Below, piece after piece: positions 3,021 through 32,645 of a stretch of 33,498 nt of DNA (its first letter is position 1; each line of letters opens with the position of its first letter). The notes under the pieces are model-generated. The model made no database searches, was not told where the DNA came from, and saw only the letters and a program-made list of their open reading frames with translations. This stretch comes from Xanthobacteraceae bacterium. Lineage in GTDB: Bacteria > Pseudomonadota > Alphaproteobacteria > Rhizobiales > Xanthobacteraceae. The stretch is taken from assembly GCA_030038995.1 (NCBI GenBank), contig JASHQS010000224.1, forward strand, positions 1 to 33,498, in the 5' to 3' direction. Made by a program: the position numbers and the translations under genes.

Positions 3021-3035
3021 GGACGAGCATGTCGC

Positions 3036-4183: not shown

Positions 4184-4185
4184 GG

Positions 4186-4412: not shown

Positions 4413-4556
4413 GTTCACAAGTTCGGCAGGGACATGAGGCAAGCAGCCGGCAAGCAAGTTTGGTTACTGAAGCGCCGCCCGTGTGTTGGAGTTGATTGAC
4501 GGAGTTCATGATATGTTCAATGCTTGGTGACTTTTTCAGCCGGCAACGCAGGTCAA

Positions 4557-5264
4557 ATGATCATCAAAGTACTGGTGTTCGCTGTTTTTGTGGTGCTGCT
4601 CGTGGCCGTTCCACTGGTGACTCCGGTTGCCGTGGGGCGGCTGGGCCTGCGGCTTTGGGAGCGGCTGCTGGCCAGGATGACTTCGCCCGTGGCCGACAAT
4701 CGAATTCTTTATTGGCCGGTCGCCGTCGCGATTGTTTGGCCTCTACTGTTTGTTTTGCTGTTGCAGCTCTGCCAGTTTTTTTGGCTGCCGATCATATCGG
4801 AATTTTTCTTCGTAATTGTCGGTTTTGGGCTTGCCGCGATCTGGGTAGGTATGGTCATCGTTGCCTGCAGGCTGATGATCCAGTGGGCGGCTGCGCGACA
4901 ATGGCGCGCAGTACTCTCGACTGTCATATTGCCATTGACTTTTTTGCTGGTGCTATTGAGCTCACCTTTCGTCATGCCTTTCCTCTGGAAGCAGACCGAT
5001 ACCGCGGCAGAGTACGCGCGCTTCTTTGTGGCTTATCACTCCTACCTGGCGCCGGTCGCAAAGGAACCTGCGACTGGGTCGCGGTTCGTGGTGTGGATGC
5101 ACGACTACAATGACCGTGGGCTGTTGTACGACGAAACCGACGAGGTCGCGTACGATCATCCATCCGAAGCTTGGGAGATGAAAGCCGAGGTAGACGGCAT
5201 CGTTCGTTCGTCGCAACGGCATATCATTGGCCATTTTTATTTTGTCCGGCTTTCACATCCGTAA
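4557..5264 (+). CDS. Membrane protein, putative immunity to the 4186 toxin family
   Basis: A 235-residue protein. ATG 4557 is preferred to the TTG at 4524 because the hydrophobic N-terminus starts there. Four or so membrane segments (residues about 1-25, 55-80, 85-110, 130-150) are followed by a soluble tail. The tail shares a pattern with the protein at 7978: YDETDEV or YDESDEF, then a Glu/Trp-rich helix, then II and GHFYFVRL or GSHFYLV at the end. Both genes directly follow members of the same toxin family, so they are probably cognate immunity proteins acting at the inner membrane. No named family is recognised. GC content is lower than in structural genes. Confidence 0.55.
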   Translation: MIIKVLVFAVFVVLLVAVPLVTPVAVGRLGLRLWERLLARMTSPVADNRILYWPVAVAIVWPLLFVLLLQLCQFFWLPIISEFFFVIVGFGLAAIWVGMVIVACRLMIQWAAARQWRAVLSTVILPLTFLLVLLSSPFVMPFLWKQTDTAAEYARFFVAYHSYLAPVAKEPATGSRFVVWMHDYNDRGLLYDETDEVAYDHPSEAWEMKAEVDGIVRSSQRHIIGHFYFVRLSHP

Positions 5265-5287
5265 GGGATGGGATCCTGGGGTTTCCG

Positions 5288-5305
5288 AGGCGGGACAACC
5301 CGCCT
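5288..5305 (+). terminator. Rho-independent-like hairpin
   Basis: AGGCGGG, loop ACAA, CCCGCCT, then TTTC, 24 bp after the membrane gene stop. It is a compact perfect stem with only a short T tract. It would separate toxin-cargo transcription from the capsid gene. The rest of the 5265-5579 gap shows no convincing gene. Confidence 0.5.
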
Positions 5306-5579
5306 TTCATGTCCTTTATAAAATCTTGAACCTATAGAGCTGCGCCGACGGTCGAGCCGCGCGCGTAAATGCGTTCGTTCGGTTTACCGCCGCTGTCGTC
5401 GTTCAATCAAAAATACCCATCGCCAAGCGTGCAGAACGGCGCGCCGTCATCCGCTCGCCCCGTGCAGGCCACCACCGGCTCCACCACGACAGCAGTGACG
5501 AAATTCCCGCCGCCGCGGGAACACTGGATTGTTCGTTGCCAACAATCCGAACGCAACACCAACCAACAGGGACCACGCC

Positions 5580-7154: not shown

Positions 7155-7178
7155 TCGCACGTCGCATTGTTCTTAAAT

Positions 7179-7203
7179 CCCCGCGGCGCCGAGCGTCGCG
7201 GGG
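7179..7203 (+). terminator. Strong GC hairpin after capsid gene
   Basis: CCCCGCGGCG, loop CCGAG, CGTCGCGGGG (one G-T pair), then GCTTCCTT, 24 bp after the capsid stop. Likely a transcription terminator or mRNA 3' stabiliser that keeps capsid expression high relative to the toxin behind it. Confidence 0.6.
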
Positions 7204-7227
7204 GCTTCCTTCATCGACGGATTTCTC

Positions 7228-7967
7228 GTGCCGCCGCGTCAACAAGCGCGGACGGTTATCGGCTACGACCCGAACGAGCCGCGCGTCCCCGCCGGCAATC
7301 CGCACGGCGGGGAATGGACGAGCAGTGGTGGCGGGAGTGGGAGCAACGGCGATAGTTCAAAGGCAACCGCATCCCCGCCGTCACATTCAGGTGCTAGGTC
7401 GATCATTTCCGATGCTGCGCCTGACAATCCTTGGAAACCAGGCGCGCAGTACGCAGAAGTCGTTGCGTCGCCAAAACTTTCAGCACACGATATACCGGCT
7501 GACAATCCGAAGCATCCAGTGCCGTTTATGGACAGCAACGGACAGCCGGTCTTCGATGACCAAGGAAATGCCCTCTCGCGACCGGCCGATCTGCCGCCGG
7601 AAATGTATGTGCGAGCGGGACTTGCTGCCGGAAAGCAGTTTGCCGCTACTACCGCGACACCAGGGCCGGACGCCGCTTCATTTTACCAGGCTATGCTCGG
7701 CATTGCGCATGAACTGCAGCAGTTCGAGCACGCCGGCGCATGGGACGCCGAACGCGTCCAGGGCAGATATGTCACCGAGTACGAGGATTATGCAACAATC
7801 GCGATTGGCTTTATTGTGTCGCGGCAGGCATCCCGTTTTACACTGCATTGTTGATCCAGCTTTCCTATACGCTGAAGCAGGGCCGCCTGTTGACTGCACG
7901 AGAAATTCGTGACACGCAGATTGGTTATGAGCTCTATCAATCCGGCCGCATTTCGTCCGACCGCTGA
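7228..7967 (+). pseudogene. Polymorphic toxin (orphan-family member with linker), frame-broken
   Basis: The only start is a GTG at 7228. The coiled-coil leader of the other toxins is missing and the protein opens almost directly with the linker YDPNEPRVPAGNPHGGEWTSSGGGSG. A toxin-like domain follows: VPFMDSNGQPVFDDQGNA, RPADLPPEMYVRAG, then HAGAWDAERVQGRYVTEY and EDYATIAIG. At about 7805-7815 the protein sense moves one frame back (LYCVAAGIPFYTALL) and runs to RDTQIGYELYQSGRISSDR at 7967. One extra base in ATTGGCTTT would join them. The composition distantly recalls toxin type 44 domains, which I cannot confirm. The immunity gene start at 7978 overlaps the end region. Confidence 0.6.
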
Positions 7968-7977
7968 GGGAGGCCCG

Positions 7978-8544
7978 ATGATGCCGTCCGTTGAGAGCGA
8001 CCGCATTGCGCGTTGGCCGTTCTTGTTCACGATCGGTTGTCCAGCCGTCTTTGTTCTGATCTGTGCCGGACCGTTCAAGCTTATGGTGGTTGGCGCGCCG
8101 GTAATTGTATTTTACTGGGTGCTCGCCGCCCTGGTAGCCCTGTGCGTCGCTGCTGCGTACGCATACCATCGTTTATGGCGGCGATTTTTGTCAATTGTGG
8201 CTTTTCCCCTGAGTACGCTGATCGCTGCCTGGAACTTTGGATTTGTTTGGGGAACCGGCCAGCTATGGGGCGCTTACCTTCATTTTCTCGTTGTGCGCCC
8301 AATTTACTTGCAGGAAATTTCCAAGCTGCCGGCCGAAAAACCTCGCTTCAAGGTTTTTTACTGGAACTCTTGGTTCCTGAGTAGCACAGAAGTGGTGTAC
8401 GATGAGAGCGATGAGTTCACCTTGCCGCCGGAGAGCCGATCTGCAGAGTGGATGAAAAAAGCCGAAACGACCGATGCCGTATGTCCGATCATCGGATATA
8501 CGTCGATGGGCAGTCATTTTTATCTCGTCACGTTCGGCTGCTAG
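7978..8544 (+). CDS. Membrane protein, putative immunity to the 7228 toxin
   Basis: A 188-residue protein. GAGGGAGG at 7966-7973 overlaps the toxin stop (7965-7967) and precedes ATG 7978 (a second ATG follows at 7981), so translation is probably coupled to the toxin. Residues about 13-90 contain three or four membrane segments. The soluble tail has VVYDESDEF and GSHFYLVTFGC, matching the tail of the protein at 4557. The TAG stop at 8542 is also the first triplet of a palindromic element. GC is lower than in the structural genes, indicating recent transfer. Immunity role inferred from the repeated toxin-plus-membrane-gene pairing. Confidence 0.55.
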   Translation: MMPSVESDRIARWPFLFTIGCPAVFVLICAGPFKLMVVGAPVIVFYWVLAALVALCVAAAYAYHRLWRRFLSIVAFPLSTLIAAWNFGFVWGTGQLWGAYLHFLVVRPIYLQEISKLPAEKPRFKVFYWNSWFLSSTEVVYDESDEFTLPPESRSAEWMKKAETTDAVCPIIGYTSMGSHFYLVTFGC

Positions 8545-13911: not shown

Positions 13912-14086
13912 CTCTCCCTCCCTGAAAAGGGGGAGCGGGGGTCCCCACAAAATTCGCGCAGCGAATTTTGTGGGGTGCCCCGGTTGGGGCGGGGGTCGCT
14001 GGCCGTTAGCACCGCGCCCGTAAGCGACGCCGCGTGAGCGGCACACGGCCCCCACCTATCCTCCCCCTTTCAGGGGGAGGAAGAGT
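13912..14086 (+). repeat. Palindromic repeat PE-3 (intergenic copy)
   Basis: Outer arms CTCCCTCCCTGAAAAGGGGG / CCCCCTTTCAGGGGGAGG, inner GCGGGGGT / CCCCCACC, and a perfect 15-bp inverted repeat CCCCACAAAATTCGC / GCGAATTTTGTGGGG at 13943-13975. Related copies sit inside genes at 18349-18490 and 29853-30011. It fills most of the gap between tube and chaperone genes. Confidence 0.85.
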
Positions 14087-17811: not shown

Positions 17812-18107
17812 CCACGCTGATCGACAAGGGCGGGCCGTCGCCGCAGGCGCAGGCCGCGATCGGTCGCCATGCCCATGACGTGACGATGACTGCGCTGACC
17901 ATTGCACTGGCCAAACACTTCGTCATCGGCCGCGAGCGGCGCGAGGTCGAAGACTTCCTGTCGTACTTTGCCGAGCAGTCGCGGCGCATGGCCGTGCAAG
18001 CGGCCATTGCCGGCGTCGAGCCGGCGGCCGGGCAAAAGACCGGCCAGCTTGCCGCCATGCTTCTTGACAAGCACATCGAGGCGCGACGTGAGCGAGAACG
18101 AGAATGA
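17808..18107 (+). CDS. Small tail-operon protein, unknown
   Basis: A 99-residue protein starting at GTG 17808 within the hub stop (GTGA overlap). Mostly helical: IGRHAHDVTMTALTIALAKH, then SYFAEQSRRMAVQAAIAG and a basic end (KHIEARREREREE-like). Its last 20 bp overlap the peptidase gene. Position between gp13-like and gp14-like genes is consistent and both overlaps suggest coupled translation. No family recognised. Confidence 0.55.
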   Translation: MTTLIDKGGPSPQAQAAIGRHAHDVTMTALTIALAKHFVIGRERREVEDFLSYFAEQSRRMAVQAAIAGVEPAAGQKTGQLAAMLLDKHIEARRERERE

Positions 18108-18939
18108 AGCAGAACAGCGCGCTGCCGTTGTCGCCGAAGCGCGCTCATGGATCGGCACGCGGTACCATAACTGCGCCGACGTGAAGGGCGCCGGAGTGGA
18201 TTGCGGCATGCTGCTCGTTCGCGTGTTCGTCGACACCGGGCTGTGCCAACCGTTCGACCCGCGGCCCTATCCGCCCGACTGGCATCTGCACCGGTCCGAG
18301 GAAAGGTATCTCGGCTTCCTGTTCGACCGCTGCCATGAGGTTTTTCTGCTCCCTCCCCCTGAGAGGGGGAGCGGGGGTGTCCCGGTCGGGGTGGGGGTCG
18401 CGGGTCGGCAGCGTGGCGCGCTGATCGCAAACACTGAGCTGCCGGGCCGCGACCCCCACCTATCCTCCACCTTTCAGGGGGAGGAAGAGCGAGCGGCTCT
18501 CTCCAATCAGGCGCCGAGCGCCGCGGGTTGGGGGGCGGCGGGGCGCGAGGCGCCAAGCAAAGTGCAGCCCGGCGACGTCGCCGTGTTCCGTTTCGGCCGC
18601 TGCTATTCGCACGGCGGCATCGTGACAGAGGTCAAGTGTCAGACATCAGGTATCAGGCATCAGGTATCAGGCGCCAGGGATCGGGCCTTGATGCCTGATC
18701 CCCGGTCCCTGATCCCTGATATCCGGATCGTGCATGCCTACGCGCCGGCGCGCTGCGTCGTCGAGGAACCCGTCGTGCAGAATCCGGCGCTCAATGAAGC
18801 CAAGCGCGCGCCGCGGTTCTTCAGCTACTTCGGAAATCAGAAGTCGGAAATCGGAAATCAGGATGAGCAAGCCCTTCGACTTCGGAATCCTGAATTCCGC
18901 CTTCTGACTTCCGGCCTCGGCGTGCGGAGCGCGCCGTGA
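18088..18939 (+). CDS. NlpC/P60-type cell wall peptidase (GTA gp14-like) with repeat insertions
   Basis: A 283-residue protein. GTG 18088 overlaps the preceding gene. Residues 13-88 match the NlpC/P60 start: ARSWIGTRYHNCADVKGAG, VDCGMLLVRV (Cys39 as nucleophile). The His region appears as QPGDVAVFRFGRCYSHGG (His175). The family is normally about 140-150 residues. Here three repeats are translated in frame: PE-4 (residues about 88-134), S2 (about 185-212) and S3 (about 247-278). The conserved peptidase parts remain in one frame around them. It would open peptidoglycan at the tail tip during entry. Confidence 0.72.
   Translation: MSENENEAEQRAAVVAEARSWIGTRYHNCADVKGAGVDCGMLLVRVFVDTGLCQPFDPRPYPPDWHLHRSEERYLGFLFDRCHEVFLLPPPERGSGGVPVGVGVAGRQRGALIANTELPGRDPHLSSTFQGEEERAALSNQAPSAAGWGAAGREAPSKVQPGDVAVFRFGRCYSHGGIVTEVKCQTSGIRHQVSGARDRALMPDPRSLIPDIRIVHAYAPARCVVEEPVVQNPALNEAKRAPRFFSYFGNQKSEIGNQDEQALRLRNPEFRLLTSGLGVRSAP
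18349..18490 (+). repeat. Palindromic repeat PE-4, in frame inside the peptidase gene
   Basis: Arms CTCCCTCCCCCTGAGAGGGG / CCACCTTTCAGGGGGAGG and GGGGGTCGCG / CGCGACCCCC. Same family as 13912-14086 and 29853-30011 but without the central CCCCACAAAATTCGC stem. It lies entirely within coding sequence and keeps it open. Confidence 0.82.
18641..18722 (+). repeat. Iterated inverted repeat S2 (TCAGGCATCAGG / CCTGATCCCTGAT)
   Basis: Left: ATCAGG units in a row. Right: the complement CCTGATCCC units. The whole is translated inside the peptidase gene. The same unit type recurs at 30353-30478. Confidence 0.78.
18828..18920 (+). repeat. Iterated inverted repeat S3 (GGAAATCAGAAGTCGG)
   Basis: CGGAAATCAGAAGTCGG units then GAATTCCGCCTTCTGACTTC in opposite sense, coding the last part of the peptidase. 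The units resemble those at 33331-33418. Confidence 0.7.
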
Positions 18940-22758: not shown

Positions 22759-23841
22759 ATGTCCCAAGGCTCAACCGTCCTCCCCACCACCGGCGTGTTT
22801 TCCGGCCTGACCGAGCAGGGCAACATCAATGCCGCGCTCGCGGCGCTGTTGTCGAACAATTCCGGCGGCGCGGCGCCGTCGGCGCCGACGCAGTATCAGT
22901 TCTGGGCCGACACCTCGGTATCGGGCCAGGTCACGCTGCACTGGTATATCGGCACCACATGGGTGCCGCTGTTGGTCGCCGACACGAGCACGGACGCCAT
23001 CATCGACGATCCGCTGTCGCCGAAGAATTGGGTGGCGGCGAGCGGCACCCACGACGCCATCGTCGCGACCTACGATCCGCCGCTCGCCACGCTGGTCGAC
23101 GGCATGGTGCTGTCGTTCCGCGCCACGTCGGCGAATTTGACCACGGCGCCGACATTCGATCCCAACGGCCTTGGCGCCGGCACGATCACCAAGAACGGCG
23201 GCCAGGCGCTCGCCATCGGCGACATTCCCGGCAACCTCGCCGAAATCCAGCTCCGCTACAATCTCGCCAACACGCGCTGGGAACTTTTAAATCCGCCGGC
23301 GGTGCCGGTCGGCGGCATCGTGCCGTATTTCGGCGGCACGCTGCCGTCCGGCTTCGCCTTGCCGCAAGGGCAAAATTTTTCGGCGACGACATTCCCGGCA
23401 GCCAATGCCGTGCTCGGCACCACCTACGGCAATCCGGGCGGCGGCAATTTCACCATGCCGGACCTGCGCGGGCGCTTCTTCTTCAATCTGGACGCCGGCG
23501 GCTCCGGCCGCATCACCTCCGCCGGCGGCAATTTCGACGGCACGGTGCTGGGGAACGCGGGCGGGGCGCAGAACCGCGCGCTGTCGTCCACCAATCAGTT
23601 ACCGCAGTTCACGCCGAGCGGCACGATTGGGGGGAGCCAGACCTTTAATGACATCTGGATGTACGGCGGTACTGCAAATCCGGCGACGGCTGGTCCTGGA
23701 AACCAATTTGTCCCCAGTTCCTTAACAGTCCAGGGTAGCAGTTTTAGCTTCACCGGCAATGCCATCGGCAGCGCGTCGCCGTCGACGTTCCCCACGATTC
23801 CGCCCGCCATGGGCATCAATTGCATGATGCGGATCGCTTGA
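22759..23841 (+). CDS. Tail collar-domain fibre protein
   Basis: A 360-residue protein. Residues about 1-175 are a fibre shaft/adaptor (GNINAALAALLSNNSGG; QYQFWADTSVSGQVTLHWY). The collar domain is VGGIVPYFGGTLPSGFALPQ, then GNPGGGNFTMPDLRGRF (about 193-245). The short C-terminal tip ends PTIPPAMGINCMMRIA. The last 19 bp (CATGATGCGGATCGCTTGA) recur at least three more times downstream next to enzyme genes, plus a degenerate copy at 29082. It presumably binds the host surface. Confidence 0.8.
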   Translation: MSQGSTVLPTTGVFSGLTEQGNINAALAALLSNNSGGAAPSAPTQYQFWADTSVSGQVTLHWYIGTTWVPLLVADTSTDAIIDDPLSPKNWVAASGTHDAIVATYDPPLATLVDGMVLSFRATSANLTTAPTFDPNGLGAGTITKNGGQALAIGDIPGNLAEIQLRYNLANTRWELLNPPAVPVGGIVPYFGGTLPSGFALPQGQNFSATTFPAANAVLGTTYGNPGGGNFTMPDLRGRFFFNLDAGGSGRITSAGGNFDGTVLGNAGGAQNRALSSTNQLPQFTPSGTIGGSQTFNDIWMYGGTANPATAGPGNQFVPSSLTVQGSSFSFTGNAIGSASPSTFPTIPPAMGINCMMRIA

Positions 23842-24675
23842 CTTTTCCAGAATCCAGAGGCCTTCGCTCATTCCGTTCAATTGAGAATGGACGATGGCAA
23901 AGCCAAATCTCGACGCCACATAGCTGAACATCTCGGTCATCGCGGCATAGTCCCAAACGTGAAAATGAATGTTGAGGTGTCTCGCCACAAACTCGGCGAC
24001 CATTGCGCGCCGCTCTCCTCCTTTTAGTCCGAAGGCATTTGAGACCCAATCGTCGTAATGATCCGCGCGTGACCCTTCTGGGCCGTGCTCGTAATCGGCG
24101 ATCAGGTGCTCAAGCGGCGTGATCGGGCGCCTGCGATCGAATGAGAAGCGTTTGTCAGGCAGTGTAACAAAAGCGATGCCGCCAGGACGAAGAACGCGGT
24201 TAATTGTTTGGAAGGCGCGGAGTGGATTTTCTAAATGCTCTAAAACGTGGTTTGCGATGACGAAATCCATGCTGCCATTCTCAATGCAGTCCATGGTCTC
24301 AATGTCGGTCACAATGTCCGGCGTGGTGATTTTGTTGTAGTGCGGCGAAAACTGCTCAACGAGCGCCTCTGGGGTCTCGATATCGGCGTAGCGGATCTTG
24401 ATGTGGCGTGGCAGATCGAGAGGGGCGTTGAGCGCGCCGAATTCTATTCCTGAGCCGCGCAGGTATTTTCGCGCCAACCGCTTGCGAAGGCCGTGAATGG
24501 TCTCCCTGCCTAAAGCATGACGGATAAATCCGCCTGCGGGCGTCGCATCGATGACCGACGCGGCAATGCTGCGTGTCCATGATCGCTGCGGCGGGTTGCC
24601 CGGATCGGAAAGACCGCAGCCACTACAAATCTGAGCTTCATCGCTGATGTCAGCTTTACACCTAGGACAAAGCAT
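23722..24675 (-). CDS. SAM methyltransferase with zinc ribbon, reading into collar gene
   Basis: Reverse strand. ATG 24675. Residues 2-22 form a zinc ribbon (CPRC and CSGC). The methyltransferase core follows: GSGIEFGALNAPLDLP (motif I variant), then SMDFVIANHVLEHLENPL and VLRPGGIAFVTLPDKRFSF. A paralogue lies at 27225, which ends ...FILCKL. The equivalent here (LWILEKS) falls exactly at the collar stop codon (23839-23841). The native stop is gone and translation continues about 38 codons into the antisense of the collar end. The family is often found in polysaccharide or O-antigen loci. Confidence 0.72.
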   Translation of the reverse strand: MLCPRCKADISDEAQICSGCGLSDPGNPPQRSWTRSIAASVIDATPAGGFIRHALGRETIHGLRKRLARKYLRGSGIEFGALNAPLDLPRHIKIRYADIETPEALVEQFSPHYNKITTPDIVTDIETMDCIENGSMDFVIANHVLEHLENPLRAFQTINRVLRPGGIAFVTLPDKRFSFDRRRPITPLEHLIADYEHGPEGSRADHYDDWVSNAFGLKGGERRAMVAEFVARHLNIHFHVWDYAAMTEMFSYVASRFGFAIVHSQLNGMSEGLWILEKSSDPHHAIDAHGGRNRGERRRRRAADGIAGEAKTATLDC

Positions 24676-24707
24676 CTTTGCCGCCTGATTGTAGTCTCAC
24701 AGTCGTC

Positions 24708-24956
24708 GATTGCACACGGCTGAGAACCAAAAGTCAACCAGGGCGCGAGTGCAACCTCTGGAACGATAAGACTGTCCAACACCGCCCATGGTCGTTAACT
24801 ACGCCGTGAGGATTGCGCGAAGGGCAATCTGCAGCCTGCTTCCGTTGGCTCCGCCATTGGCTTGCCCCGGATCGCGGCGACGCGATCCGGGCTACGGCGG
24901 CTGTGCCGTTCATCCCACCCGCCATGGGCATCAACTGCATGATGCGGATCGCTTAA
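24708..24956 (+). repeat. Collar 3'-end remnant R2 with leader block
   Basis: Ends with codons for PFIPPAMGINCMMRIA and a stop, the same last 13 residues as the collar protein (site CATGATGCGGATCGCTTAA at 24938-24956). The upstream block (TTGCACACGGCTGAGAACC, AAAGTCAACC) is repeated in R3. A hairpin CCCGGATCGCG / CGCGATCCGGG lies at 24866-24891. No intact gene. Confidence 0.78.
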
Positions 24957-25753
24957 AACGGCTGCCACTGAGTGCCGTGTCTTGCGGCCCTTAGCTCGGC
25001 GACCGGGATAGCATTCCGCTCAAGGACGGCTACGAACGGATATAGATGCATCGATCCGACGGCCGATTGAAATGCCGTTGTCCGGCCAAAAAGTCTGCGC
25101 GTGTCATCGTCTGGAAAATCGTTGATCTGCGCTGCGTCGTTCAGCCGGTCCGCCAAGCCGTGAAGATATGCCGCGAATTTGTTACCCGTTCCATGGATGT
25201 CTTCACACAGATAGATCCCTCCGGGTCGAAGAAATGGAAGCAACTCCTCCAGGCTCACGATTTGTTGCTCGGGCTCGTGGCCGCCGTCATCTATGACGAT
25301 GTCAAGGCACGGTACCCTTCGGCGAAAGTCGCGCCAAAACGAACGGTCGGCTTGATCGCCGATAAAAATCTTGATCCCTGGTGCCTCGTAGGCGCGACAC
25401 TCGGGCATAATATCGACGCCGTAGATGAACGCCTTCGCACCAAAATAATCGTGCCACATCGCTAGGCTGCCGCCACTGTGGACGCCGATTTCGAGAACGT
25501 AAGCTTGCTGTCCGCGAAATCGACAAAGGTGACGGTCATAGATTTCGAAATAATGCCTCCACTTGCAGATCCCCGGACCCCCCTGGTCCCTGCGGGCATC
25601 AAAGAATTCCCGCAAAGGATTTGACTGGGAGCGTGGAATCCAACTGCCTGTTGTTGCCACTGACCAAGCGAAGTCGGTATCGCGCCCTCGTTTAATCCAT
25701 CTGCTCAGCCTCCTGAATTTCAGGGAGGCCAATGTCGCTCGGATGAGACCCAT
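24953..25753 (-). CDS. CmcI/Methyltransf_24-like SAM methyltransferase
   Basis: Reverse strand. ATG 25753 is chosen because the frame further upstream only mirrors repeat R3. A loose AGGGG precedes it. Core motifs: YVLEIGVHSGGSLAMW (SAM-binding), IYGVDI, CLDIVIDDGGHEPEQQ, LEELLPFLRPGGIYLCEDIH. These fit the cephalosporin hydroxylase/CmcI-like group that methylates or hydroxylates small molecules and sugars. Its TAA stop (24953-24955 read in reverse) is formed by the end of remnant R2, so the gene is fused precisely to that junction. Confidence 0.72.
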   Translation of the reverse strand: MGLIRATLASLKFRRLSRWIKRGRDTDFAWSVATTGSWIPRSQSNPLREFFDARRDQGGPGICKWRHYFEIYDRHLCRFRGQQAYVLEIGVHSGGSLAMWHDYFGAKAFIYGVDIMPECRAYEAPGIKIFIGDQADRSFWRDFRRRVPCLDIVIDDGGHEPEQQIVSLEELLPFLRPGGIYLCEDIHGTGNKFAAYLHGLADRLNDAAQINDFPDDDTRRLFGRTTAFQSAVGSMHLYPFVAVLERNAIPVAELRAARHGTQWQPF

Positions 25754-25867
25754 GCCCCTGCAAATCCCGCTTTCCATAGCCGGCTCGGCCGACGCCTTCG
25801 CTGCGCGGGCGGCGATGCGGCGGCCAATCGCCAGATCAAGCTGTCTGTTTTGCTTTGCTACGGCCGC

Positions 25868-26184
25868 TAATTGCGCACGGCTGAGAACCAAAAGTCAACC
25901 GGGGTGCGACTGCAACCTGTGGAACGGCAAGACCGACCGGCGCCGGCCGGGCTCATCGACTGCCCGATGAGGATTGCGCGACCCTGCTACGCTCGCTATG
26001 CGAGCTTCGGAGGGTTCGAGTCCGCCGCAGCGCGGATCGCGTAGGCGGGAGCGCAGTCCGGCCTGCCTCCGTTGGCTCCGCCATTGGTTTGCCCCGGATC
26101 GCGACGACGCGATCCGGGCTACGGCGGCTGTGCGGAGCATTCCGCCGGCGATGGGCAGCAACGGCATAAATGCGGATTGCCTGA
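25868..26184 (+). repeat. Collar 3'-end remnant R3 with leader block
   Basis: Shares with R2 the block TTGCGCACGGCTGAGAACC, AAAGTCAACCGGGGTGCGA, the segment CTCCGTTGGCTCCGCCATTGG and the CCCGGATCGCG hairpin (26093-26118). It ends in a more decayed collar end (IPPAMGSNG; CATAAATGCGGATTGCCTGA at 26165-26184). Confidence 0.75.
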
Positions 26185-26192
26185 CATGGCTT

Positions 26193-27053
26193 TCAACCGA
26201 CGAAGCGATGTTTTATTGTGCTAAGCGCACGCCGCAGTGTGCTCGGCTGTTTGATGATCGCGTAAAGCTGCCCACTCGCGTCACATCCGCGCATTGGCAT
26301 GTCATCTCTGTGATTGATGCCGGAATAATGACAGATGAGCGATTTACGCAGCATGCCCGGTTTGTTCGGCTTCGAGCCGCGGTGCAGAAGGCGACCATGC
26401 CAGATCAGCGCGTCGCCGCGGTTAGCGATGAATTGCCGCACCTCTGCATCGCGGCGCCTTATTTCCGCGTCGATCGCGGGAACAACAAACGATTCCGACA
26501 CCTGCGGCCAATGCGGCCGCATCGCCTGCCGCCACGGCATGTGAGCGCGGACCTTATCGCCGCGCATCAGCGGCCAGCGATGCGACCCCGGAACATACTC
26601 AAATGGTCCGCTGTCGGGATGAATGTCATCGAGCGCCATCCAGACGGCGGCGTACCAGCTATTGACAAACGGCGGATTCAGATAGTCGTCCTGGTGCCAG
26701 CCGCGCTCGGTGCTTATCCATCCGGTCAGGCACAAGTGCAATATCATTGGCTCGCTGATCAGCGCCTGCATTTGCGCCATCAATGGAGGATAGAGCGCCA
26801 GTTCCCGCAACTCAGGAACATCGAGATACGGTGTTGGCGAAGCCCATCCGCCCGGCACGCTCAGCGTCGCACGTCGCTCTGAATAGGCGTCCATCAAGCT
26901 TCCGGGTAGAAAGCGTGGTAGGATCACGACGCCATCGCGGCGCCACGCCAACTGCGTCGGGGTGAGCACAGCTTCGTCAACAATGGGCTGATCGAGCGGC
27001 GGCAAGAATTTTGTCGCCGGTTCTTCGCTCAGTTCAGCAAAACTCGGCTGCAT
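26193..27053 (-). CDS. Phytanoyl-CoA dioxygenase (PhyH) family oxygenase
   Basis: Reverse strand, 286 residues. ATG 27053 is set by GGGGAGG seven bases upstream. An Fe(II)/2-oxoglutarate enzyme: HxD pair in TERGWHQDDYLNPP, then GPFEYVPGSHRWPLMRGD, distal His in DALIWHGRLLHRGSKPNKPG and Arg in MLRKSL. All metal ligands are present, so it may be active. PhyH-type enzymes hydroxylate lipids, sugars or small molecules, and a surface glycan or lipid is a reasonable guess given the neighbours. The stop lies 9 bp beyond remnant R3. Confidence 0.78.
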   Translation of the reverse strand: MQPSFAELSEEPATKFLPPLDQPIVDEAVLTPTQLAWRRDGVVILPRFLPGSLMDAYSERRATLSVPGGWASPTPYLDVPELRELALYPPLMAQMQALISEPMILHLCLTGWISTERGWHQDDYLNPPFVNSWYAAVWMALDDIHPDSGPFEYVPGSHRWPLMRGDKVRAHMPWRQAMRPHWPQVSESFVVPAIDAEIRRRDAEVRQFIANRGDALIWHGRLLHRGSKPNKPGMLRKSLICHYSGINHRDDMPMRGCDASGQLYAIIKQPSTLRRALSTIKHRFVG

Positions 27054-27100
27054 CCGAAAGCCTCCCCTCATATGCCGACGGTGCACCGCGCCAGCAGTAG

Positions 27101-27180
27101 AAGTCAACCGGATCGAAGCCATGGCGCGAAGGTCTGGTCCGCCGGCCATGCGCCTCTACCACATGATGCGGATCGCCTGA
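27101..27180 (+). repeat. Collar 3'-end remnant R4
   Basis: Begins AAGTCAACCGG as in R2/R3 and ends with codons GPPAMRLYHMMRIA and TGA (site CATGATGCGGATCGCCTGA at 27162-27180), a clear relative of the collar C-terminus. Only about 14 residues of collar sense survive. Confidence 0.75.
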
Positions 27181-27224
27181 GCCGGGCCGTTGCTTGACGG
27201 GCTGAGCGCGCTACTATCGCGCGC

Positions 27225-27956
27225 ATGTCGGGATGGCGGCGCATAAAGGCCACGCTGGCGACGCCAACGATGCGGCGCCTGCTGCGGCGGCCTGATCCCC
27301 ACGCAGTTCGCGAGGCGTTGGCAGCCAAGTATCTGCATGGTGACGGGATCGAGATTGGCGCGCTTAACGCGCCACTTCGTGTGCCGGAGCACGTCCGCGT
27401 TCGCTATGTCGATTGCGCCGAGCCGGACGTGCTGCGAGCGACCGGGTACGGTGAAGTTTCCTCCATCCAGTGGCCAGAAATTGTTGCCGATATTGAAACC
27501 CTTGCGGGCATCGATGACTGCTCCGTCGATTTTGTCATCGCCAACCACGTCCTGGAGCACGTCGAAAATCCGCTTCGCGCACTCGCCGCGATTTCCCGCG
27601 TGCTGCGACCCGGCGGCTTCGGCTTCATTGCGCTGCCGGACAAGCGCTTCACCTTCGACAAGCGCCGCGCCATCACGCCGCTTTGGCACGTTGTACGAGA
27701 TTTTCGCGAGGGGCCGCAGTGGTCGCGGCGCGGTCATTATCTCGACTACGTCGCCAATGTTGATCGCGTGCGCGATGGGGAAGCGCTAGCCAACGAATAC
27801 GAACGCAAGGCACAGAACATTCACTTTCACGTCTGGGACTTTCCTGCAATGCGGGTGATGCTCGATTATGCGGCTTCTGTGCCGGAGACCGGCTTGACAA
27901 TCGCGCACGCGCAGCAAAACCGCAGTGAGGCGGTTTTCATCCTGTGCAAGCTATAG
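27225..27956 (+). CDS. SAM methyltransferase, paralogue of 23722-24675
   Basis: Forward strand, 243 residues, ATG 27225. Very similar to the reverse-strand enzyme at 23722 over the whole core (GDGIEIGALNAPLRVP, FVIANHVLEHVENPLRAL, VLRPGGFGFIALPDKRF, NIHFHVWDFPAM) but lacking the zinc ribbon, and ending properly in FILCKL. It follows remnant R4 by 44 bp and is the only enzyme of the array on the forward strand. Confidence 0.72.
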   Translation: MSGWRRIKATLATPTMRRLLRRPDPHAVREALAAKYLHGDGIEIGALNAPLRVPEHVRVRYVDCAEPDVLRATGYGEVSSIQWPEIVADIETLAGIDDCSVDFVIANHVLEHVENPLRALAAISRVLRPGGFGFIALPDKRFTFDKRRAITPLWHVVRDFREGPQWSRRGHYLDYVANVDRVRDGEALANEYERKAQNIHFHVWDFPAMRVMLDYAASVPETGLTIAHAQQNRSEAVFILCKL

Positions 27957-28029
27957 GCCGCGCCGCTTGGAAGGCCGGCGCGCGCGGCAGCGCCTCGCGA
28001 CCATCGGCAGTCGGGAATTCTTCGCGCCA

Positions 28030-28920
28030 TCAGCGGCTCAGCCGGCGCTTGGCGCGGGTCCAAAGTCCGAGGCCGAGATGCGGTAGATGTCGCTCCAGCG
28101 CTCCCATTCGCGGCGAGAGGACGAGCTTCTTGGCGAGCAGGTCGGCGTCGAGTCTCGTGGAGATGATCTCGCGAAACTCCCGCGCCAGCGCTACGGCAGG
28201 CCCGGCGAGCCCGTAAACGTCGAAAATCGCAATCGTTTTCAAGATCGTGCTTGGCGACAAGCCGGCAGCGCCGGCAGCACCGGCAGCAACGCTGTTGCGC
28301 TCATCCAAGAGGTGCCTCGCAAACAAGACGTTGCAGGTTCCGTTCCATGGTTGGTCGGCGTCCAGCGCGCGGCTCAAGGCCAGGTCGGCGACGCGCAATC
28401 GGCGTTCGAGCAATGGGGCATTGATCGCCGCGAAGTGCGAATACGGCAAGGTCGGCCCGACGTGGAAATGGCTCTCGATGTCGGCGCCCAACAGGTTGCT
28501 CGCTTTCAGATAATCCGCGCCGCCCGCCAAAACTTCCGGCTCGTAGCCTTCGCAATCGACCTTGACGAAATCGGCAGGCGGCAGCGTGCCCTTTGCCCAC
28601 AGCGTATCCAGCCGCGCGATCGGGACCCGGTGGCCGCCGTCGGCGGACACGCGGGCCTCGTAGGGGTTGGCCGGAACGTGAACCAGGCATTCGCCGTCGA
28701 AGTTGCCGAGCGCCAGCTTGAAATAATGGTGCCGCGCGGTCGGTGCGTCGACCTCGGCAATGGCATCGAAGCCGTAGATGTCCATCGCCGGTTCGAGCGG
28801 CAGCCAGCGCGGGTGAATCCCGCCGCGAACGCCGACATCGACGAGAACGAAGGCGCCATCGAGCGCGCCGGACTCGGCGATGAATCTCGCCGCTAAGCCC
28901 GGGCTGGCAGACAGCTCCAC
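28030..28920 (-). CDS. FkbM-family methyltransferase
   Basis: Reverse strand, 296 residues, GTG start 28920. N-terminal SAM motif VLVDVGVRGGIHPRWLPL and the FkbM signature PPADFVKVDCEGYEPEVLAG (about 116-135), followed by GADIESHFHVGP. FkbM enzymes O-methylate sugars in polysaccharides, glycolipids and antibiotics. It converges with the forward methyltransferase at 27225. It ends SRMGALERHL-type sequence then RAKRRLSR. Confidence 0.75.
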   Translation of the reverse strand: MELSASPGLAARFIAESGALDGAFVLVDVGVRGGIHPRWLPLEPAMDIYGFDAIAEVDAPTARHHYFKLALGNFDGECLVHVPANPYEARVSADGGHRVPIARLDTLWAKGTLPPADFVKVDCEGYEPEVLAGGADYLKASNLLGADIESHFHVGPTLPYSHFAAINAPLLERRLRVADLALSRALDADQPWNGTCNVLFARHLLDERNSVAAGAAGAAGLSPSTILKTIAIFDVYGLAGPAVALAREFREIISTRLDADLLAKKLVLSPRMGALERHLPHLGLGLWTRAKRRLSR

Positions 28921-28938
28921 GCGACTCTCTTGGCTAGA

Positions 28939-28980
28939 TCGTTTCCCTATCGGACTGCTTCAGCGTCATTGCGAGGAGCC
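28939..28980 (+). repeat. Partial palindromic repeat PE-8
   Basis: GATCGTTTCCCTATCGGACT then GCGTCATTGCGAGG, the left third of the PE-2 family (8542-8728) without its right arm, 19 bp upstream of the FkbM start. It shows truncation of an element at an array boundary. Confidence 0.7.
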
Positions 28981-29059
28981 TGAAGGGGGCGGCTGCCGAT
29001 TGCATAGGGTGACGTGCCGAGTCAACTGCCCCGAGTCAACTGCCCAAGTCGGTCGCCCC

Positions 29060-29102
29060 AAGTCAACGGCATCATTGGCGCCTGCATGATGAGCATCGTC
29101 TA
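29060..29102 (+). repeat. Degenerate collar 3'-end remnant R5
   Basis: AAGTCAACGGC followed by CTGCATGATGAGCATCGTC and TA, agreeing with the R2 end at 17 of 21 positions. The stop codon of the reverse gene 29100-29621 (TAG) lies on its last bases, as the CmcI-like gene's does on R2. The call rests on this combination, since the sequence match alone is short. Confidence 0.5.
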
Positions 29103-29621
29103 CGGCGGATCGAGCTTGTACCAGATGCTGAGGCTGCCGGTATATGAGGCGCCCTTCGGCCAGCAGTAGACATGGACGTCGAGGTGCGCGGCTTCCATGG
29201 GCTGTCCGGCCGGAAACTGCATGCCGGCATCGGCGGGAAAATGTTCTTCGGCGTGGACGCTGGCAAAAAATTCGCCGTGCGGTCCTGACGGCACGCCGAC
29301 GGCCTTGCGCTCGGGGGTCATCAGGTCGGCATTGTAGCTGTTGCCGGCGAAAACCGAGACGAAGCTCGGCGCGCCGCGTGCCATCACGACCACGTCCGCC
29401 GCGGCGATGATGATGCGGATCGGCAGTTTTTCCCAGGCGCCGACCGCGATCGCCACCGTGTCCCAATCGGGAAACTTGTATTTCGGAACGCCGCACTCGC
29501 CGTCGAAATCGAAGGCGATGCTGCACAGCGCCGGCTCTTTCAGCTCCGGGGCGATACCGCGGCACTGCGTCGCGTGCACGGTGCCTGACCACAGCACAAC
29601 CACGATGACCGCGATCAGCAT
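29100..29621 (-). CDS. Secreted protein of unknown function
   Basis: Reverse strand, about 173 residues. ATG 29621 is chosen because a clear signal peptide follows (MLIAVIVVVLWSGTVHA, cut before TQCRG); ATG 29630 is an alternative. Mature part: DFDGECGVPKYKFPDWD, then IAAADVVVMARGAPSFVSVF, EEHFPADAGMQFPAGQPM and CWPKGASYTGSLSIWYKL. Three or four Cys suggest a periplasmic or extracellular protein. No family recognised. It diverges from the gene at 29677. Confidence 0.55.
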   Translation of the reverse strand: MLIAVIVVVLWSGTVHATQCRGIAPELKEPALCSIAFDFDGECGVPKYKFPDWDTVAIAVGAWEKLPIRIIIAAADVVVMARGAPSFVSVFAGNSYNADLMTPERKAVGVPSGPHGEFFASVHAEEHFPADAGMQFPAGQPMEAAHLDVHVYCWPKGASYTGSLSIWYKLDPP

Positions 29622-29676
29622 GCGCCACATCGGGCCATCCCACCGGCCGCGGCGCGCTCTGTCAATAGGGGAGCTC

Positions 29677-30396
29677 ATGACCGCATATATCAGAGCATCC
29701 GAAATCGGCGACATCGACGCCTTCAAGAAGCGCGTCGAAGCCTTCCGCCAGGCCAAGCTCGATCACCACAAGACCGAGGGCGAGCCGGCGCCGCGCGAGC
29801 ACGAGCTGGTCGAGGCCTGCGTGCGCCGCGTGCCGCGCGGGCAAAATTCCCGCCCCGTGAAAGGGGGAGCGGCGTCCCCACAAAATTCGCACAGCGAATT
29901 TTGTGGGGCGCCCCGGTCAGGGTGGGGGTCGCGGGGCGGCAGCGTCATGGGCCCGGCCGCGTCGCTGCCAGCCCGCGACCCCCACCCATCCTCCCCCTTT
30001 CAGGGGGAGGAGGCGCAAGCCGACGACTACGAGATCGTCGATTACGTGATCGTCGATGACCGGCCCGGCTTGCGCGCGCGCAAGGACGCGCTCATTCACC
30101 AAGTTATCGAGCAAGAGCGCGCGCTGATGGCGGCCTCGATGCCGCCTGGAAAGCGCCGGCTCGCGGCCTTGCGCGCCGCCGGCATCCGACGCAAGCGGGA
30201 AGCCGAGCGCAGCGAGGCCGACCGAAATTTCCTCGCCGACGAGGACGCGCGACAAAAACGCGAGGCCGCGATCGGCCGCTACGCCGCCGAGCAGATGGCC
30301 GCGATCGAGGACTTGACCGAAGAGATGATCGAGGTCTGGCAGCCGGCGCCGCTCCCAGGGATCAGGGATCAGGAATCGGGATCGCGGGCGGTCTGA
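29677..30396 (+). CDS. Phage tail-associated protein, unknown, with repeat insertions
   Basis: A 239-residue protein with ATG 29677 behind AGGGGAG. Residues 1-58 (ASEIGDIDAFKKRVEAFRQA) and about 112-222 (helical, Arg/Glu-rich RKREAERSEADRNFLADEDA) are protein-like. Between them residues about 59-112 are the translated palindromic element PE-5. The last residues and stop come from S4 (GIRDQESGSRAV). Without the insertions it would be a helical protein of about 175 residues. Position before the receptor-binding protein suggests a fibre-linked or assembly role. Confidence 0.6.
   Translation: MTAYIRASEIGDIDAFKKRVEAFRQAKLDHHKTEGEPAPREHELVEACVRRVPRGQNSRPVKGGAASPQNSHSEFCGAPRSGWGSRGGSVMGPAASLPARDPHPSSPFQGEEAQADDYEIVDYVIVDDRPGLRARKDALIHQVIEQERALMAASMPPGKRRLAALRAAGIRRKREAERSEADRNFLADEDARQKREAAIGRYAAEQMAAIEDLTEEMIEVWQPAPLPGIRDQESGSRAV
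29853..30011 (+). repeat. Palindromic repeat PE-5, in frame inside a gene
   Basis: Full member of the PE-3 family, including the perfect stem CCCCACAAAATTCGC / GCGAATTTTGTGGGG at 29876-29908, with outer arms GTGAAAGGGGGAGC / CTCCCCCTTTCAGGGG. It keeps the host reading frame open. Confidence 0.85.
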
Positions 30397-30481: not shown

Positions 30482-31798
30482 ATGACCGCAACGCAAATCC
30501 AATTCCGCCGCGGCAGCGCGGCGCAGATGGCCACATTCACCGGCGCCGTCGGCGAAGTTGTCGTCGATACCACCAACAACCGCGTGGTCGTGCAAGACGG
30601 CGCCACAGCGGGCGGCTGGCCCAGCGAGATCGCCGCGCGCACGGCCATCTCCGACGCCAATTACACGGTAAAAAACACCGACCGCACCATCGCCTATACC
30701 GCAATCAGCGCGGCCCGCACGGTGCAGCTCTTGGCGGCCGCATCCTACCCGACAGGTGCGCGACTCCTCATCGTCGATGAAAGCCAAGCGGCGTCGGCCA
30801 GCAGAACCATCACGCCGGTGCCCGCCGGCAGCGACACCATCAACAAGGCCTCGACCGCGCCGCCGACCGGCATCGTCAGCGTCCCCGGCGGCTCGGTCGC
30901 CCTCGAATCGGACGGGGCGAGCAACTGGACGGTGGTAGCGCCGAATCTTGCCTCCGGCGTCAGTTCGCTCAACGCCCTGACCGGCGCGATCGGCGTCAGC
31001 TATCCGATCGGGACGGCCGGCTCCAACGTCGTTGCGGTTGCCCCTTGGGCGTGCGGCCGCCTCGCCTATGTCAGCGCCACGCAGATCAAGCTCTCGCCCC
31101 ACGACGGCGATCTGATCCGCATCGCCGGCGTCGATTATCAGATACCGTCGGGCGGCGTCACTGCGGCCAACACGTCAGTCTATGTCAACGGCACCGCGGG
31201 CCAGAACCTCGCCGCCTCGACGCTCTACTACGTCTATCTGTTCAACAATTCCGGCACGCTGACCGTCAACTTTTCGACCACGGGGCACTTAACCGACGCG
31301 ACCGCCGGCAATGTCGGCACCGAGATCGAAAGCGGCAACAATGCCTGCACGCTTATCGGCATGGTCTACACCAACGCGTCGTCGCAGTTCGGCGGCGCGG
31401 CGCTGGTCGCGTCATGGTTCAGCCGGCAGAACAAGGCCGTTTCCGGCACCGTCTCGAACTTCACCACCACCGCCACGACCAGAACCACAATAGCATCGAA
31501 TGTCGTCCAGTTCCTGGCCTGGTCGGATGACGCGATCTTCGTCAGCATCGACTGCATCCCCTACAACTCGGTCTCCGGCGATTACGGGCAGCTTTACGTT
31601 CTCGACCAGAACGCGAACGAGTATTTTCAGTTCACCAGCTTAGCTGCGAACATCAATATCAATCCGTATTATCAACTGGTGCCGACGTCGGCGTTTGCGG
31701 AGGGGCTTGTCTCGCTGGCGCTCGCCGCGCTGAGCCAGGCCAGCGGCAACACCTTCGCGGTGGCCAATTGTGGAATGTACGCGATGGCGAGGACGTGA
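30482..31798 (+). CDS. Receptor-binding tail protein with Mtd-N-like start
   Basis: A 438-residue protein with ATG 30482. Residues 3-45 (TQIQFRRGSAAQMATFTGAV, GEVVVDTTNNRVVVQDGATA) closely follow the N-terminal domain of the Bordetella phage major tropism determinant, which anchors receptor-binding proteins to the baseplate. The middle (about 50-150) is beta-rich, and the C-terminal part ends VANCGMYAMART. No reverse transcriptase or template repeat is visible here, so there is no diversity-generating retroelement in the window. The stop overlaps the next ATG (TGATG). Confidence 0.75.
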   Translation: MTATQIQFRRGSAAQMATFTGAVGEVVVDTTNNRVVVQDGATAGGWPSEIAARTAISDANYTVKNTDRTIAYTAISAARTVQLLAAASYPTGARLLIVDESQAASASRTITPVPAGSDTINKASTAPPTGIVSVPGGSVALESDGASNWTVVAPNLASGVSSLNALTGAIGVSYPIGTAGSNVVAVAPWACGRLAYVSATQIKLSPHDGDLIRIAGVDYQIPSGGVTAANTSVYVNGTAGQNLAASTLYYVYLFNNSGTLTVNFSTTGHLTDATAGNVGTEIESGNNACTLIGMVYTNASSQFGGAALVASWFSRQNKAVSGTVSNFTTTATTRTTIASNVVQFLAWSDDAIFVSIDCIPYNSVSGDYGQLYVLDQNANEYFQFTSLAANININPYYQLVPTSAFAEGLVSLALAALSQASGNTFAVANCGMYAMART

Positions 31799-32154
31799 TG
31801 GACTGGGTGGCGGAGTGGCTTCGCGCGATCGACGCGCTGGCGCCGGCCAACGGCGGCATCACCATCAGCGGCATCGCTTCGTCGGCCGCGACGGTCACGC
31901 TCAATTCCGGCGCTGCGCCGCCAGCGCCGGCGGTTTGTTTCGGCGGCCGGTTCGGCTACAGTCCGCCGGCATGGCCAAGCCCTATTACGTCCGCGATCAT
32001 CGGCGCGCGGTGGCGAACTTTCTCGCCACCTTGCCGCGCGACGTCGCCATGGCGCGGTCGGTCGGGCCGCCGAATCTGCTCGAGCTCGAGCGGATCGCCA
32101 AGGTCCAGCTCGCGCTCCTTGAGGAGTTCGGGTTCGGCGCCGGCAAAGCCTTGA
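31798..32154 (+). CDS. Small phage ORF running into methyltransferase gene
   Basis: ATG 31798 overlaps the previous stop (TGATG), a coupling typical of genuine phage genes. Residues 1-57 are protein-like (MDWVAEWLRAIDALAPANGG, ITISGIASSAATVTLNSG, FGGRFGYSPPAW). From about 31970 on it is merely out of frame with the methyltransferase and becomes Arg/Ser-rich nonsense. The original gene was probably cut by insertion of the methyltransferase. Confidence 0.4.
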   Translation: MDWVAEWLRAIDALAPANGGITISGIASSAATVTLNSGAAPPAPAVCFGGRFGYSPPAWPSPITSAIIGARWRTFSPPCRATSPWRGRSGRRICSSSSGSPRSSSRSLRSSGSAPAKP

Positions 32155-32645
32155 TCGACGTCGGCTGCGGCAGCGGCGGTCTGGCCGCGCAGATATCCGA
32201 GCGCTTCGGCGAAACCGCCACCTATCTCGGCACCGATATCGTGCCGGAGCTGCTTGCGTTCGCCAAGGCGCGGTCGTGCCAAACGTACCGCTTCGAGCTG
32301 GTCGAGGATTGCGTCATCCCGGCGCCGGCGGCGAGCGCGGACTTCGTCACGCTGTTCAGCGTGTTCACTCATCTGCGGCGCGCCGATATTGCGCGCTATT
32401 TGCGCGAGGCGCGGCGGGTGCTGCGCCCGGGGGGCAAGCTCGTCTTCTCCTATATAGAGAGGGCGCGGCACGCCAAGTTTTTGCTCTATACGATTGCGGT
32501 GACGATGCTGCGCCGGCGCAAGGTCGAGAACCATTTTACCTCGGCGCGCGAGATCGAACGCTGGGCCCGCGCGTCGGAGTTTGCCGTAGAGGCGATCCTT
32601 CCGGGCCGCATCGGCCACTCGATCGCGGTGCTGCGTAAGCCGTAG
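31971..32645 (+). CDS. Class I SAM methyltransferase
   Basis: A 224-residue protein. ATG 31971 is chosen because sense begins there (MAKPYYVRDHRRAVANFL). Motif I is ALIDVGCGSGGLAAQ, then YLGTDIVPELLAFA, the acidic SADFVTLFSVFTHL, and VLRPGGKLVFSYIERARHAK. A small-molecule or sugar methyltransferase of the UbiE/Methyltransf_11/25 type. Not closely similar to the enzymes at 23722 and 27225. It overlaps the small ORF 31798-32154 and lies beside the receptor-binding protein. Confidence 0.75.
   Translation: MAKPYYVRDHRRAVANFLATLPRDVAMARSVGPPNLLELERIAKVQLALLEEFGFGAGKALIDVGCGSGGLAAQISERFGETATYLGTDIVPELLAFAKARSCQTYRFELVEDCVIPAPAASADFVTLFSVFTHLRRADIARYLREARRVLRPGGKLVFSYIERARHAKFLLYTIAVTMLRRRKVENHFTSAREIERWARASEFAVEAILPGRIGHSIAVLRKP

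What the first reader, a model, noticed from the sequence alone, without database searches (positions are those of the whole stretch)
22759..29630. Cassette array built on the 3' end of the tail-collar gene
Seen: the last 19 bp of the collar gene (R1, 23823-23841) recur at 24938-24956 (R2), 26165-26184 (R3), 27162-27180 (R4), and degenerately at 29082-29102 (R5). R2-R4 still encode the collar C-terminus (PPAMxxxxMMRIA). Between them sit single reverse-strand genes (methyltransferase, CmcI-like, PhyH, secreted protein) whose stop codons fall at or within about 10 bp of the repeat. R2 and R3 also share a longer leader block. Inference: repeated events at the collar 3' end each delivered a new fibre tip plus a reverse-oriented modifying enzyme and left the old tip downstream, like orphan-toxin arrays. 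This could be a host-range and surface-modification switching system that I do not know as described.
Basis: partly seen in the sequence, partly recalled or inferred. Interest (0 to 1): 0.9.

Follow-up and report, generated by a model that had tools for sequence, protein, structure and literature searches.

The report
Stacked phage fibre tips with enzymes
Behind a phage tail-fibre gene lies a row of leftover fibre-tip ends, most of them beside a gene for a likely surface-sugar-modifying enzyme; related phages carry other tips and other enzymes at the same spot, so the row is likely a fossil record of repeated swaps of the part that would recognise the host.

Summary
The repeat is real and specific: R1, R2 and R4 are the only matches of the 19-mer in the held 4.6-Mb genome; R3 is frameshifted, R5 is at noise level. 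R encodes the last strand of a T4-type receptor-binding domain. In 44 homologues codons 286-330 are hypervariable between conserved flanks. Sister genome G193 carries extra receptor-binding cassettes that begin at the domain boundary (codon 178), with cores 96-97% identical over 185 bp but different tips. R-plus-enzyme blocks are collinear between genomes; in 4 of 9 internal junctions a fragment of the start of the right-hand gene gpD abuts or precedes displaced sequence. This fits stacking by unequal recombination between related phages, like Rhs orphans. In this window and G233 displaced tips have decayed while the enzyme genes stay open, three of them under purifying selection: here a graveyard of tips and a bank of enzymes, not a working switch. 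Glycan modification and receptor masking are inferred. Closest precedent: xenorhabdicin loci (PMC13280938). A new variant of a known kind.

The parts
22759..23841 (+). Expressed tail-collar fibre gene: codons 1-177 N-terminal part, 178-245 collar core, 246-345 variable tip, 346-360 conserved C-terminal strand (R1 at 23797-23841)
   Evidence: PF07484; conservation profile; model and T4 gp12/gp37 match 181-360
23722..24675 (-). MT1, zinc-ribbon class I methyltransferase; native part about 23842-24675, rest is antisense collar because its stop is lost
   Evidence: Methyltransf_11; R1+MT1 block collinear with L043 2038-2967 at 75%; dN/dS 0.17
24709..24737 (-). Promoter-like TTGACT-N17-TGCAAT upstream of MT1 (predicted)
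   Evidence: one of only 2 matches in the held genome
24709..24963 (+). Leader block copy 1, containing R2
24912..24956 (+). R2, relic of a displaced collar 3' end
24953..25756 (-).
25751..25830 (+). Relic of the start of gpD, the phage gene that follows the array
   Evidence: 84% to the L043 relic, 72% over 64 bp to the intact L037 gpD start
25870..26191 (+). Leader block copy 2 (with an insertion of about 68 bp), containing R3
26139..26184 (+). R3, frameshifted relic; homologous to the R of tip-C collars in G193 and G246
   Evidence: R3+PhyH block 75% to L037 532-1510, 73% to L041 4208-5190
26193..27149 (-). PhyH-family Fe/2-oxoglutarate oxygenase (relatives start at 27053)
   Evidence: PF05721; dN/dS 0.09-0.16 to three relatives
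27136..27180 (+). R4, relic of a displaced collar 3' end
27225..27956 (+). MT2, class I methyltransferase, forward strand; same R-then-MT2 order as behind the expressed collar of L045
28030..28920 (-). FkbM-family methyltransferase
   Evidence: PF05050, TIGR01444
28999..29025 (-). Promoter-like TTGACT-N15-TGCAAT upstream of the FkbM gene (predicted)
29100..29643 (-).
29677..30396 (+). gpD, intact phage gene that bounds the array on the right; no Pfam match

Best explanation
The array is a stack of displaced receptor-binding-domain cassettes at the 3' end of a phage fibre gene, likely built by repeated unequal recombination between related phages, each round adding a new tip together with a gene for an enzyme predicted to modify surface sugars. 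Shown: the gene has a conserved N-terminal part, a conserved collar core, a hypervariable tip and a conserved last strand; relatives carry different tips and enzymes there; an extra cassette starting at the domain boundary, and truncated copies, lie downstream of full collars; R+enzyme blocks are collinear between genomes; fragments of the start of the right-hand gene gpD lie inside the arrays. Inferred: one crossover joining the gpD start of one phage to the collar of another gives [collar A - enzyme A - gpD start | collar B fragment - enzyme B - gpD]; repeating it builds the stack. Displaced tips have no start and decay in time; enzymes, most of which face the other way and seem to have their own promoter, are kept. 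Predicted function: expressed from the prophage, they alter the surface glycan so that the lysogen is not adsorbed by phages bearing the current or former tips.
Against: No tip-enzyme pair is strictly kept: tip A is followed by MT1, MTx or an MT2-type gene. MT2 is forward in the window and L045. Five of 9 internal junctions lack gpD: window 24675-24912 and 27107-27136, L035 11486 (broken enzyme to codon 178), L043 about 2983-3040, L041 3768 (cold-shock-like start to codon 212). The window's own orphans are too eroded to show which tips they carried. G193 and G233 arrays are split over contigs (MAGs), so the order across contigs is inferred; cassette B runs off its contig, and cassette C starts at a contig edge, so its missing N-terminal part is not directly seen. 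The consensus promoter scan shows no excess (1 found, 1.6 expected). 12 more distant fibre loci show no orphan end. Pairwise dN/dS includes time before capture, and the Methyltransf_24 and FkbM genes were not tested. No virion, induction, glycan or adsorption data.
Confidence: 0.6

Rival explanations
1. Moron hot spot: enzymes enter one by one behind the collar stop, and the repeated R is a by-product copied at the insertion joints; tips are not displaced.
For: In the window only about 45 bp of collar survives at each joint; the same tip class sits beside different enzymes; in L046 several enzymes lie in a row with a single R found; 5 of 9 internal junctions show no gpD.
Against: Whole or long receptor-binding cassettes with different tips lie downstream in G193, and a tip A relic from codon 254 in G233; cores start at the domain boundary.
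Confidence: 0.2
2. Tandem duplication inside one genome, followed by divergence of the copies.
For: The three G193 cores are 96-97% alike over 185 bp, more than to other genomes.
Against: Tips are closer to tips of other genomes than to the expressed tip of the same genome, and neighbouring units carry different enzyme families.
Confidence: 0.08
3. The linked enzymes modify the fibre tip itself (glycosylation, methylation or hydroxylation of the protein) and not the host surface.
For: Tight linkage to the tip; the enzymes' substrates are unknown.
Against: Relatives of the Methyltransf_24 gene act on macrolide antibiotics (that they methylate its sugars is recalled); mostly reverse orientation and a predicted own promoter suggest expression apart from the late operon; a PhyH relative lies in a host glycosyltransferase-like cluster.
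Confidence: 0.15
4. R is a site for a dedicated site-specific recombinase (invertase, integron-like or retroelement system).
For: R is conserved and repeated.
Against: Copies are direct, not inverted; breakpoints lie at several codons; no reverse transcriptase above the cut-off in the genome; R conservation is explained by the fold.
Confidence: 0.04

Closest known systems
Rhs orphan toxin-immunity modules (PMC3967940; passages read, some from the abstract)
   Same: Displaced C-terminal fragments, often with part of the conserved region and usually without a start, lie downstream of a full gene, each beside a partner gene; an orphan in one serotype is part of the main gene in another; recombination can fuse them to the main gene.
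   Different: The variable end is a receptor-binding domain of a virion fibre, not a toxin; the partner is an enzyme, mostly in opposite orientation, not an immunity protein; in the window the orphans are dead.
Xenorhabdicin tailocin loci (PMC13280938; passages read)
   Same: Extra fibre genes without the attachment domain in a hypervariable region with glycosyltransferase genes, which the authors propose give self-resistance by altering LPS.
   Different: There a fibre-end fragment is found inverted and recombinases encoded elsewhere are suspected; here units are direct, most R ends meet an enzyme gene tail-to-tail, and gpD fragments mark some joints; different phage and enzyme families.
Phage serotype-conversion clusters, e.g. 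gtrABC of epsilon34/P22 (PMC2629481; passages read)
   Same: Prophage enzymes that alter the surface polysaccharide and move between phages.
   Different: One three-gene glucosylation operon; here a stack of single methyltransferase or oxygenase genes directly on the fibre 3' end.
Localized exchange of receptor-binding protein and chaperone in R-type syringacins (PMC6331570; passages read)
   Same: Clean local exchange of the receptor-binding gene and its partner by recombination.
   Different: Replacement, with no archive of displaced ends in the passages seen.
Invertible phage fibre ends and shufflons (PMC4272514; passages read)
   Same: Alternative C-termini for one fibre.
   Different: Need invertase and inverted repeats; none seen here.

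Membership tests
Phage tail-collar fibre (PF07484) with T4-type receptor-binding domain | Collar domain by sequence | tested here: met
   PF07484 49.5 bits against cut-off 24
Phage tail-collar fibre (PF07484) with T4-type receptor-binding domain | Collar closed by the C-terminal strand, head inserted between | tested here: met
Rhs-like orphan array | Fragments with conserved core plus a different C-terminus downstream of a full gene | tested here: met
   Met in G193 for cassette B; C is on another contig. In the window only the last 45 bp remain
Rhs-like orphan array | Orphan C-terminus is part of the main gene in a relative | tested here: met
   At class level only: tip B 43% to expressed L036 against 28% to the expressed tip of its own genome; tip C 49% to expressed L045 against 15%
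Rhs-like orphan array | C-terminus is a toxin with a cognate immunity gene | tested here: not met
   Tip is a fibre domain, partner an enzyme
Invertible fibre / shufflon | Inverted repeats and a nearby invertase | tested here: not met
   Copies are direct; no recombinase among the 24 distinct window translations put to Pfam or PHROGs; not every window ORF was scanned
Diversity-generating retroelement | Reverse transcriptase | tested here: not met
   Only a sub-threshold RVT_1 match in the genome, on contig C209; genome 91% complete
Lysogenic-conversion module | Surface-glycan enzyme | tested here: inconclusive
   Relatives among antibiotic- and metabolite-tailoring enzymes and a weak NanM match in L046 below its cut-off; substrate unknown
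Lysogenic-conversion module | Expression from the prophage by an own promoter | not testable with these tools
   Shared promoter-like element only; consensus scan negative
Xenorhabdicin-like extra fibre ends | Extra fibre ends exchanged by inversion | tested here: not met
   Units are in direct orientation

The most novel reading that the evidence does not exclude
Phages keep an archive of receptor-masking enzymes: each receptor-binding tip arrives with the enzyme that hides its own receptor, the tip dies when replaced, but the enzyme stays on under its own promoter, so the prophage accumulates poly-immunity of its host against all phages bearing the former tips. This would be the fibre counterpart of toxin-immunity arrays, written and dated by the decay of the tips.
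Probability: 0.3. Interest if true: 0.85.

Novelty: new variant of a known kind. Interest (0 to 1): 0.6.

Why it matters
It shows how a tailed phage can exchange a whole receptor-binding domain and leave a readable record of past exchanges, so that the history of host recognition of a phage line could be read from one locus. If the enzymes mask the receptors of the linked tips, receptor choice and self-exclusion travel together, as toxin and immunity do, and the question why surface-modifying genes sit beside fibre genes becomes testable tip by tip.

Tried and rejected
R5 as a fifth copy: noise level. Genome-wide short repeat: rejected, 3 copies in the 4.6 Mb held, all here. Structured RNA or tRNA target: none above Rfam gathering scores, no tRNA. 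Diversity-generating retroelement: no reverse transcriptase above the cut-off. Strict tip-enzyme pairs: not supported. By eye tip A is with MT1 in the window and on two metagenome contigs matched by length (22,626 and 17,181 bp), but it sits beside MTx in G193 and, as a relic, beside an MT2-type gene in G233; PhyH is found with tips B and C. A further R before the PhyH fragment at the end of L043: not convincing. Orphan collar ends in 12 more distant fibre loci of the family and genus (L157-L168): none at E 1e-3 in stretches of 12.0-14.5 kb, though epimerases, methyltransferases, acyltransferases or a GDSL gene are near in several. PDB sequence search with the collar alignment: no match; only the fold search gave relatives. 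PhyH in named phages: no match; the collar there: 54 records, all under 60% identity and none covering 80%. MTx in viral contigs: no relative. R-type pattern in viral contigs: only the contig of L045. Wider genome searches with other collars: 1 of 397 genomes in the order (the own one) and 5 of 391 in the family at E 1e-25, no new array. The capsid of this element is in 9 of 20 genomes of the genus at E 1e-3 (G161 partial, G246 41%), the last third of the gene upstream of the collar in 5 of 20; the capsid contigs of G002, G146, G175, G184 and G076 end before a collar would come, and G076 C185 goes on with a different fibre.

Of the viral loci L047-L097, most share only the codon 90-180 domain; only L047 was looked at, and L045 and L046 were analysed in full.
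Full report
WHAT THE WINDOW HOLDS. It carries genes of a tailed phage or GTA-like element: head protease, head-tail adaptor and tape measure by PHROGs, DUF2460, a TIGR02218 baseplate hub protein and a large tail protein with Rcc01698_C. The fibre gene 22759-23841 has the phage collar domain.

THE REPEAT. The match to the collar end is 43 bp (R2 40/43, R4 33/43; best of 500 surrogates 27/43). R3 is real but frameshifted (sequence). R5 is not distinguishable from chance. The leader in front of R2 and R3 is duplicated (112 bp at 79%, 144 bp at 83%).

RELATIVES. In the genus, matches to the collar at E 1e-3 are in 5 of the 20 genomes searched, the own one included; close ones in G193, G233 and G246. 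IMG/VR gave two full relatives, L045 and L046. Their N-terminal parts are 61-88% alike and cores 75-100% (truncated L041 lower), but tips fall into classes: A (window and G193 expressed, 58%), B (G233 expressed, L046, G193 silent B, 42-44%), C (L045, L041, G193 silent C, 49-52%); tips of different classes are 15-37% alike, except L045-L046 at 44%. The neighbours differ too: MT1 (window), a Methyltransf_24 gene (G193), a gene cut by the contig end (G233), a gene with a weak NanM match below cut-off (L046), MT2 forward (L045), PhyH (G193 cassette C and G246).

SILENT CASSETTES. In G193 the contig with the full collar (tip A) goes on with its reverse methyltransferase, relics of the secreted-protein gene and of the L046-type enzyme, then a second collar that starts at codon 178 with tip B and runs to the contig end. 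A second contig of the same genome starts at the same base of the core with tip C, ends in R, and is followed by PhyH, an acyltransferase, a relative of the secreted protein, gpD and later phage genes. Similarity of the three cores starts at one base (AATCCGCC) and is 96-97% over the first 185 bp before it drops towards the tip (B to expressed 88% over 287 bp). That the two contigs are halves of one element is inferred. In G233 the cassette is a relic with three stops (collar codons 254-360), then R, an MT2-type gene, R', MT1. The window is the last stage: only R remains.

JUNCTIONS. R+enzyme blocks match across genomes as units: window R1+MT1 with G233 R'+MT1 (75%, 952 bp), window R3+PhyH with G193 (75%, 984 bp) and G246 (73%, 989 bp). 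The gene right of the array, gpD, is intact in the window (29677), L037 and L046. Pieces of its start lie inside the arrays at 4 of the 9 internal junctions that I read: window 25751-25830, 40 bp before the leader of R3; L043 2003-2093, joined to R'; L043 about 820 and L035 about 11281, where the intergenic stretch and only the first 8 or so bases of gpD are joined to collar codon 254 and to the 3' end of an enzyme. A single unequal crossover between two related genomes predicts such joints. The other five lack gpD: window MT1 to R2 and PhyH to R4, L035 11486 (broken enzyme to codon 178), L043 about 2983-3040, and L041 3768 (a cold-shock-like start, by eye, to codon 212); later deletions or other events must be assumed for them.

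GEOMETRY. Of 12 R-type ends (window R1-R4, L035, L036, L037, L041, L043 two, L045, L046), 10 meet a reverse gene, in 9 of them with its stop between 26 bp inside and 12 bp beyond the collar-type stop, 5 of these at exactly 4 bp overlap; the tenth, MT1 in the window, has lost its stop and runs 120 bp into the collar. R4 and L045 are followed by MT2 in forward orientation (coordinates, arithmetic, R3 corrected by one base).

PROMOTERS. TTGAC lies within 180 bp of 10 of 17 chosen starts (16 genes, one with two starts) against 2.0 expected by mononucleotide shuffling; several of these genes are homologous to each other and two share the duplicated leader, so they are not independent. TTGACT-N14-18-TGCAAT occurs twice in the held genome, both upstream of reverse enzymes of the array (backwards control 0). 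The standard consensus scan finds no excess (1 against 1.6), since it demands A at the second -10 base. This is a prediction.

ENZYMES OUTLIVE TIPS. All five enzyme genes of the window are open, while its three displaced tips are gone. dN/dS is 0.09-0.25 in 7 comparisons of MT1, MT2 and PhyH (dS often above 1, so rough; the other two genes had no close relative at hand). The Methyltransf_24 gene is closest in the PDB to 3ssm and 8ia9 (that these methylate macrolide sugars is recalled), PhyH weakly to oxygenases such as MysH, phytanoyl-CoA dioxygenase and EvdO2. In G218 a PhyH relative (66%, one stop in the matched stretch) lies near genes that by eye are a methyltransferase and glycosyltransferases (no family search on those).

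BREADTH. Exact equality of contig lengths and a shared source puts collar and MT family on one contig 6 times (22,626; 17,181; 14,774; 7,152; 4,805; 4,153) and collar and PhyH 7 times (25,365; 7,152; 4,985; 55,826; 3,433; 528,481; 36,315): 12 contigs of the 42 listed collars P0002-P0045 with contig data. The enzyme lists are capped at 120 of 394 and 120 of 1376, so this is a lower bound; it is inferred from lengths, and the contigs were not read. Among 12 more distant loci none has an orphan collar end, so the stack seems a trait of this phage group, while fibre-enzyme neighbourhood is wider.

LITERATURE. Ten searches, seen as listings with the starts of abstracts, showed no report of stacked collar cassettes with reverse enzymes; most subscription papers are not in the library. 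Nearest are Rhs orphans (PMC3967940) and xenorhabdicins (PMC13280938), whose authors propose self-resistance by glycosyltransferases in the same locus. Also seen in passages: PMC13123978, PMC2629481, PMC6331570, PMC4272514.

VERDICT. On checking, the gpD count (4 of 9 junctions) led me to lower the confidence of the mechanism slightly.

Noticed in passing
29846-30010, 13926-14080, 18350-18484: A palindromic repeat of up to 165 bp occurs three times, twice inside open phage frames (gpD and the ORF at 17902-18939); the L046 gpD lacks it.
   Followed up: partly
about 18-8544; also L126 1542, 3816, 7450: A second cassette-like array between protease and capsid region: modules with a PRVPAGNPxGGEWT-type linker (243, 2901, 7279, a variant at 3373) followed by different C-terminal parts.
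   Followed up: no
30482-32645: A fibre with an Mtd_N domain right of gpD, overlapped by another methyltransferase ORF.
   Followed up: no
L041 3746-3790: The G246 tip C cassette is fused at codon 212 to a start that by eye looks like a cold-shock protein.
   Followed up: no
L047 4639-6411: Same collar N-terminal part continued by a different, larger fibre end.
   Followed up: no
L110/L193, 58.6-kb viral contig: An MT2-type gene (60%) beside genes that by eye look like tail fibres of another phage.
   Followed up: no
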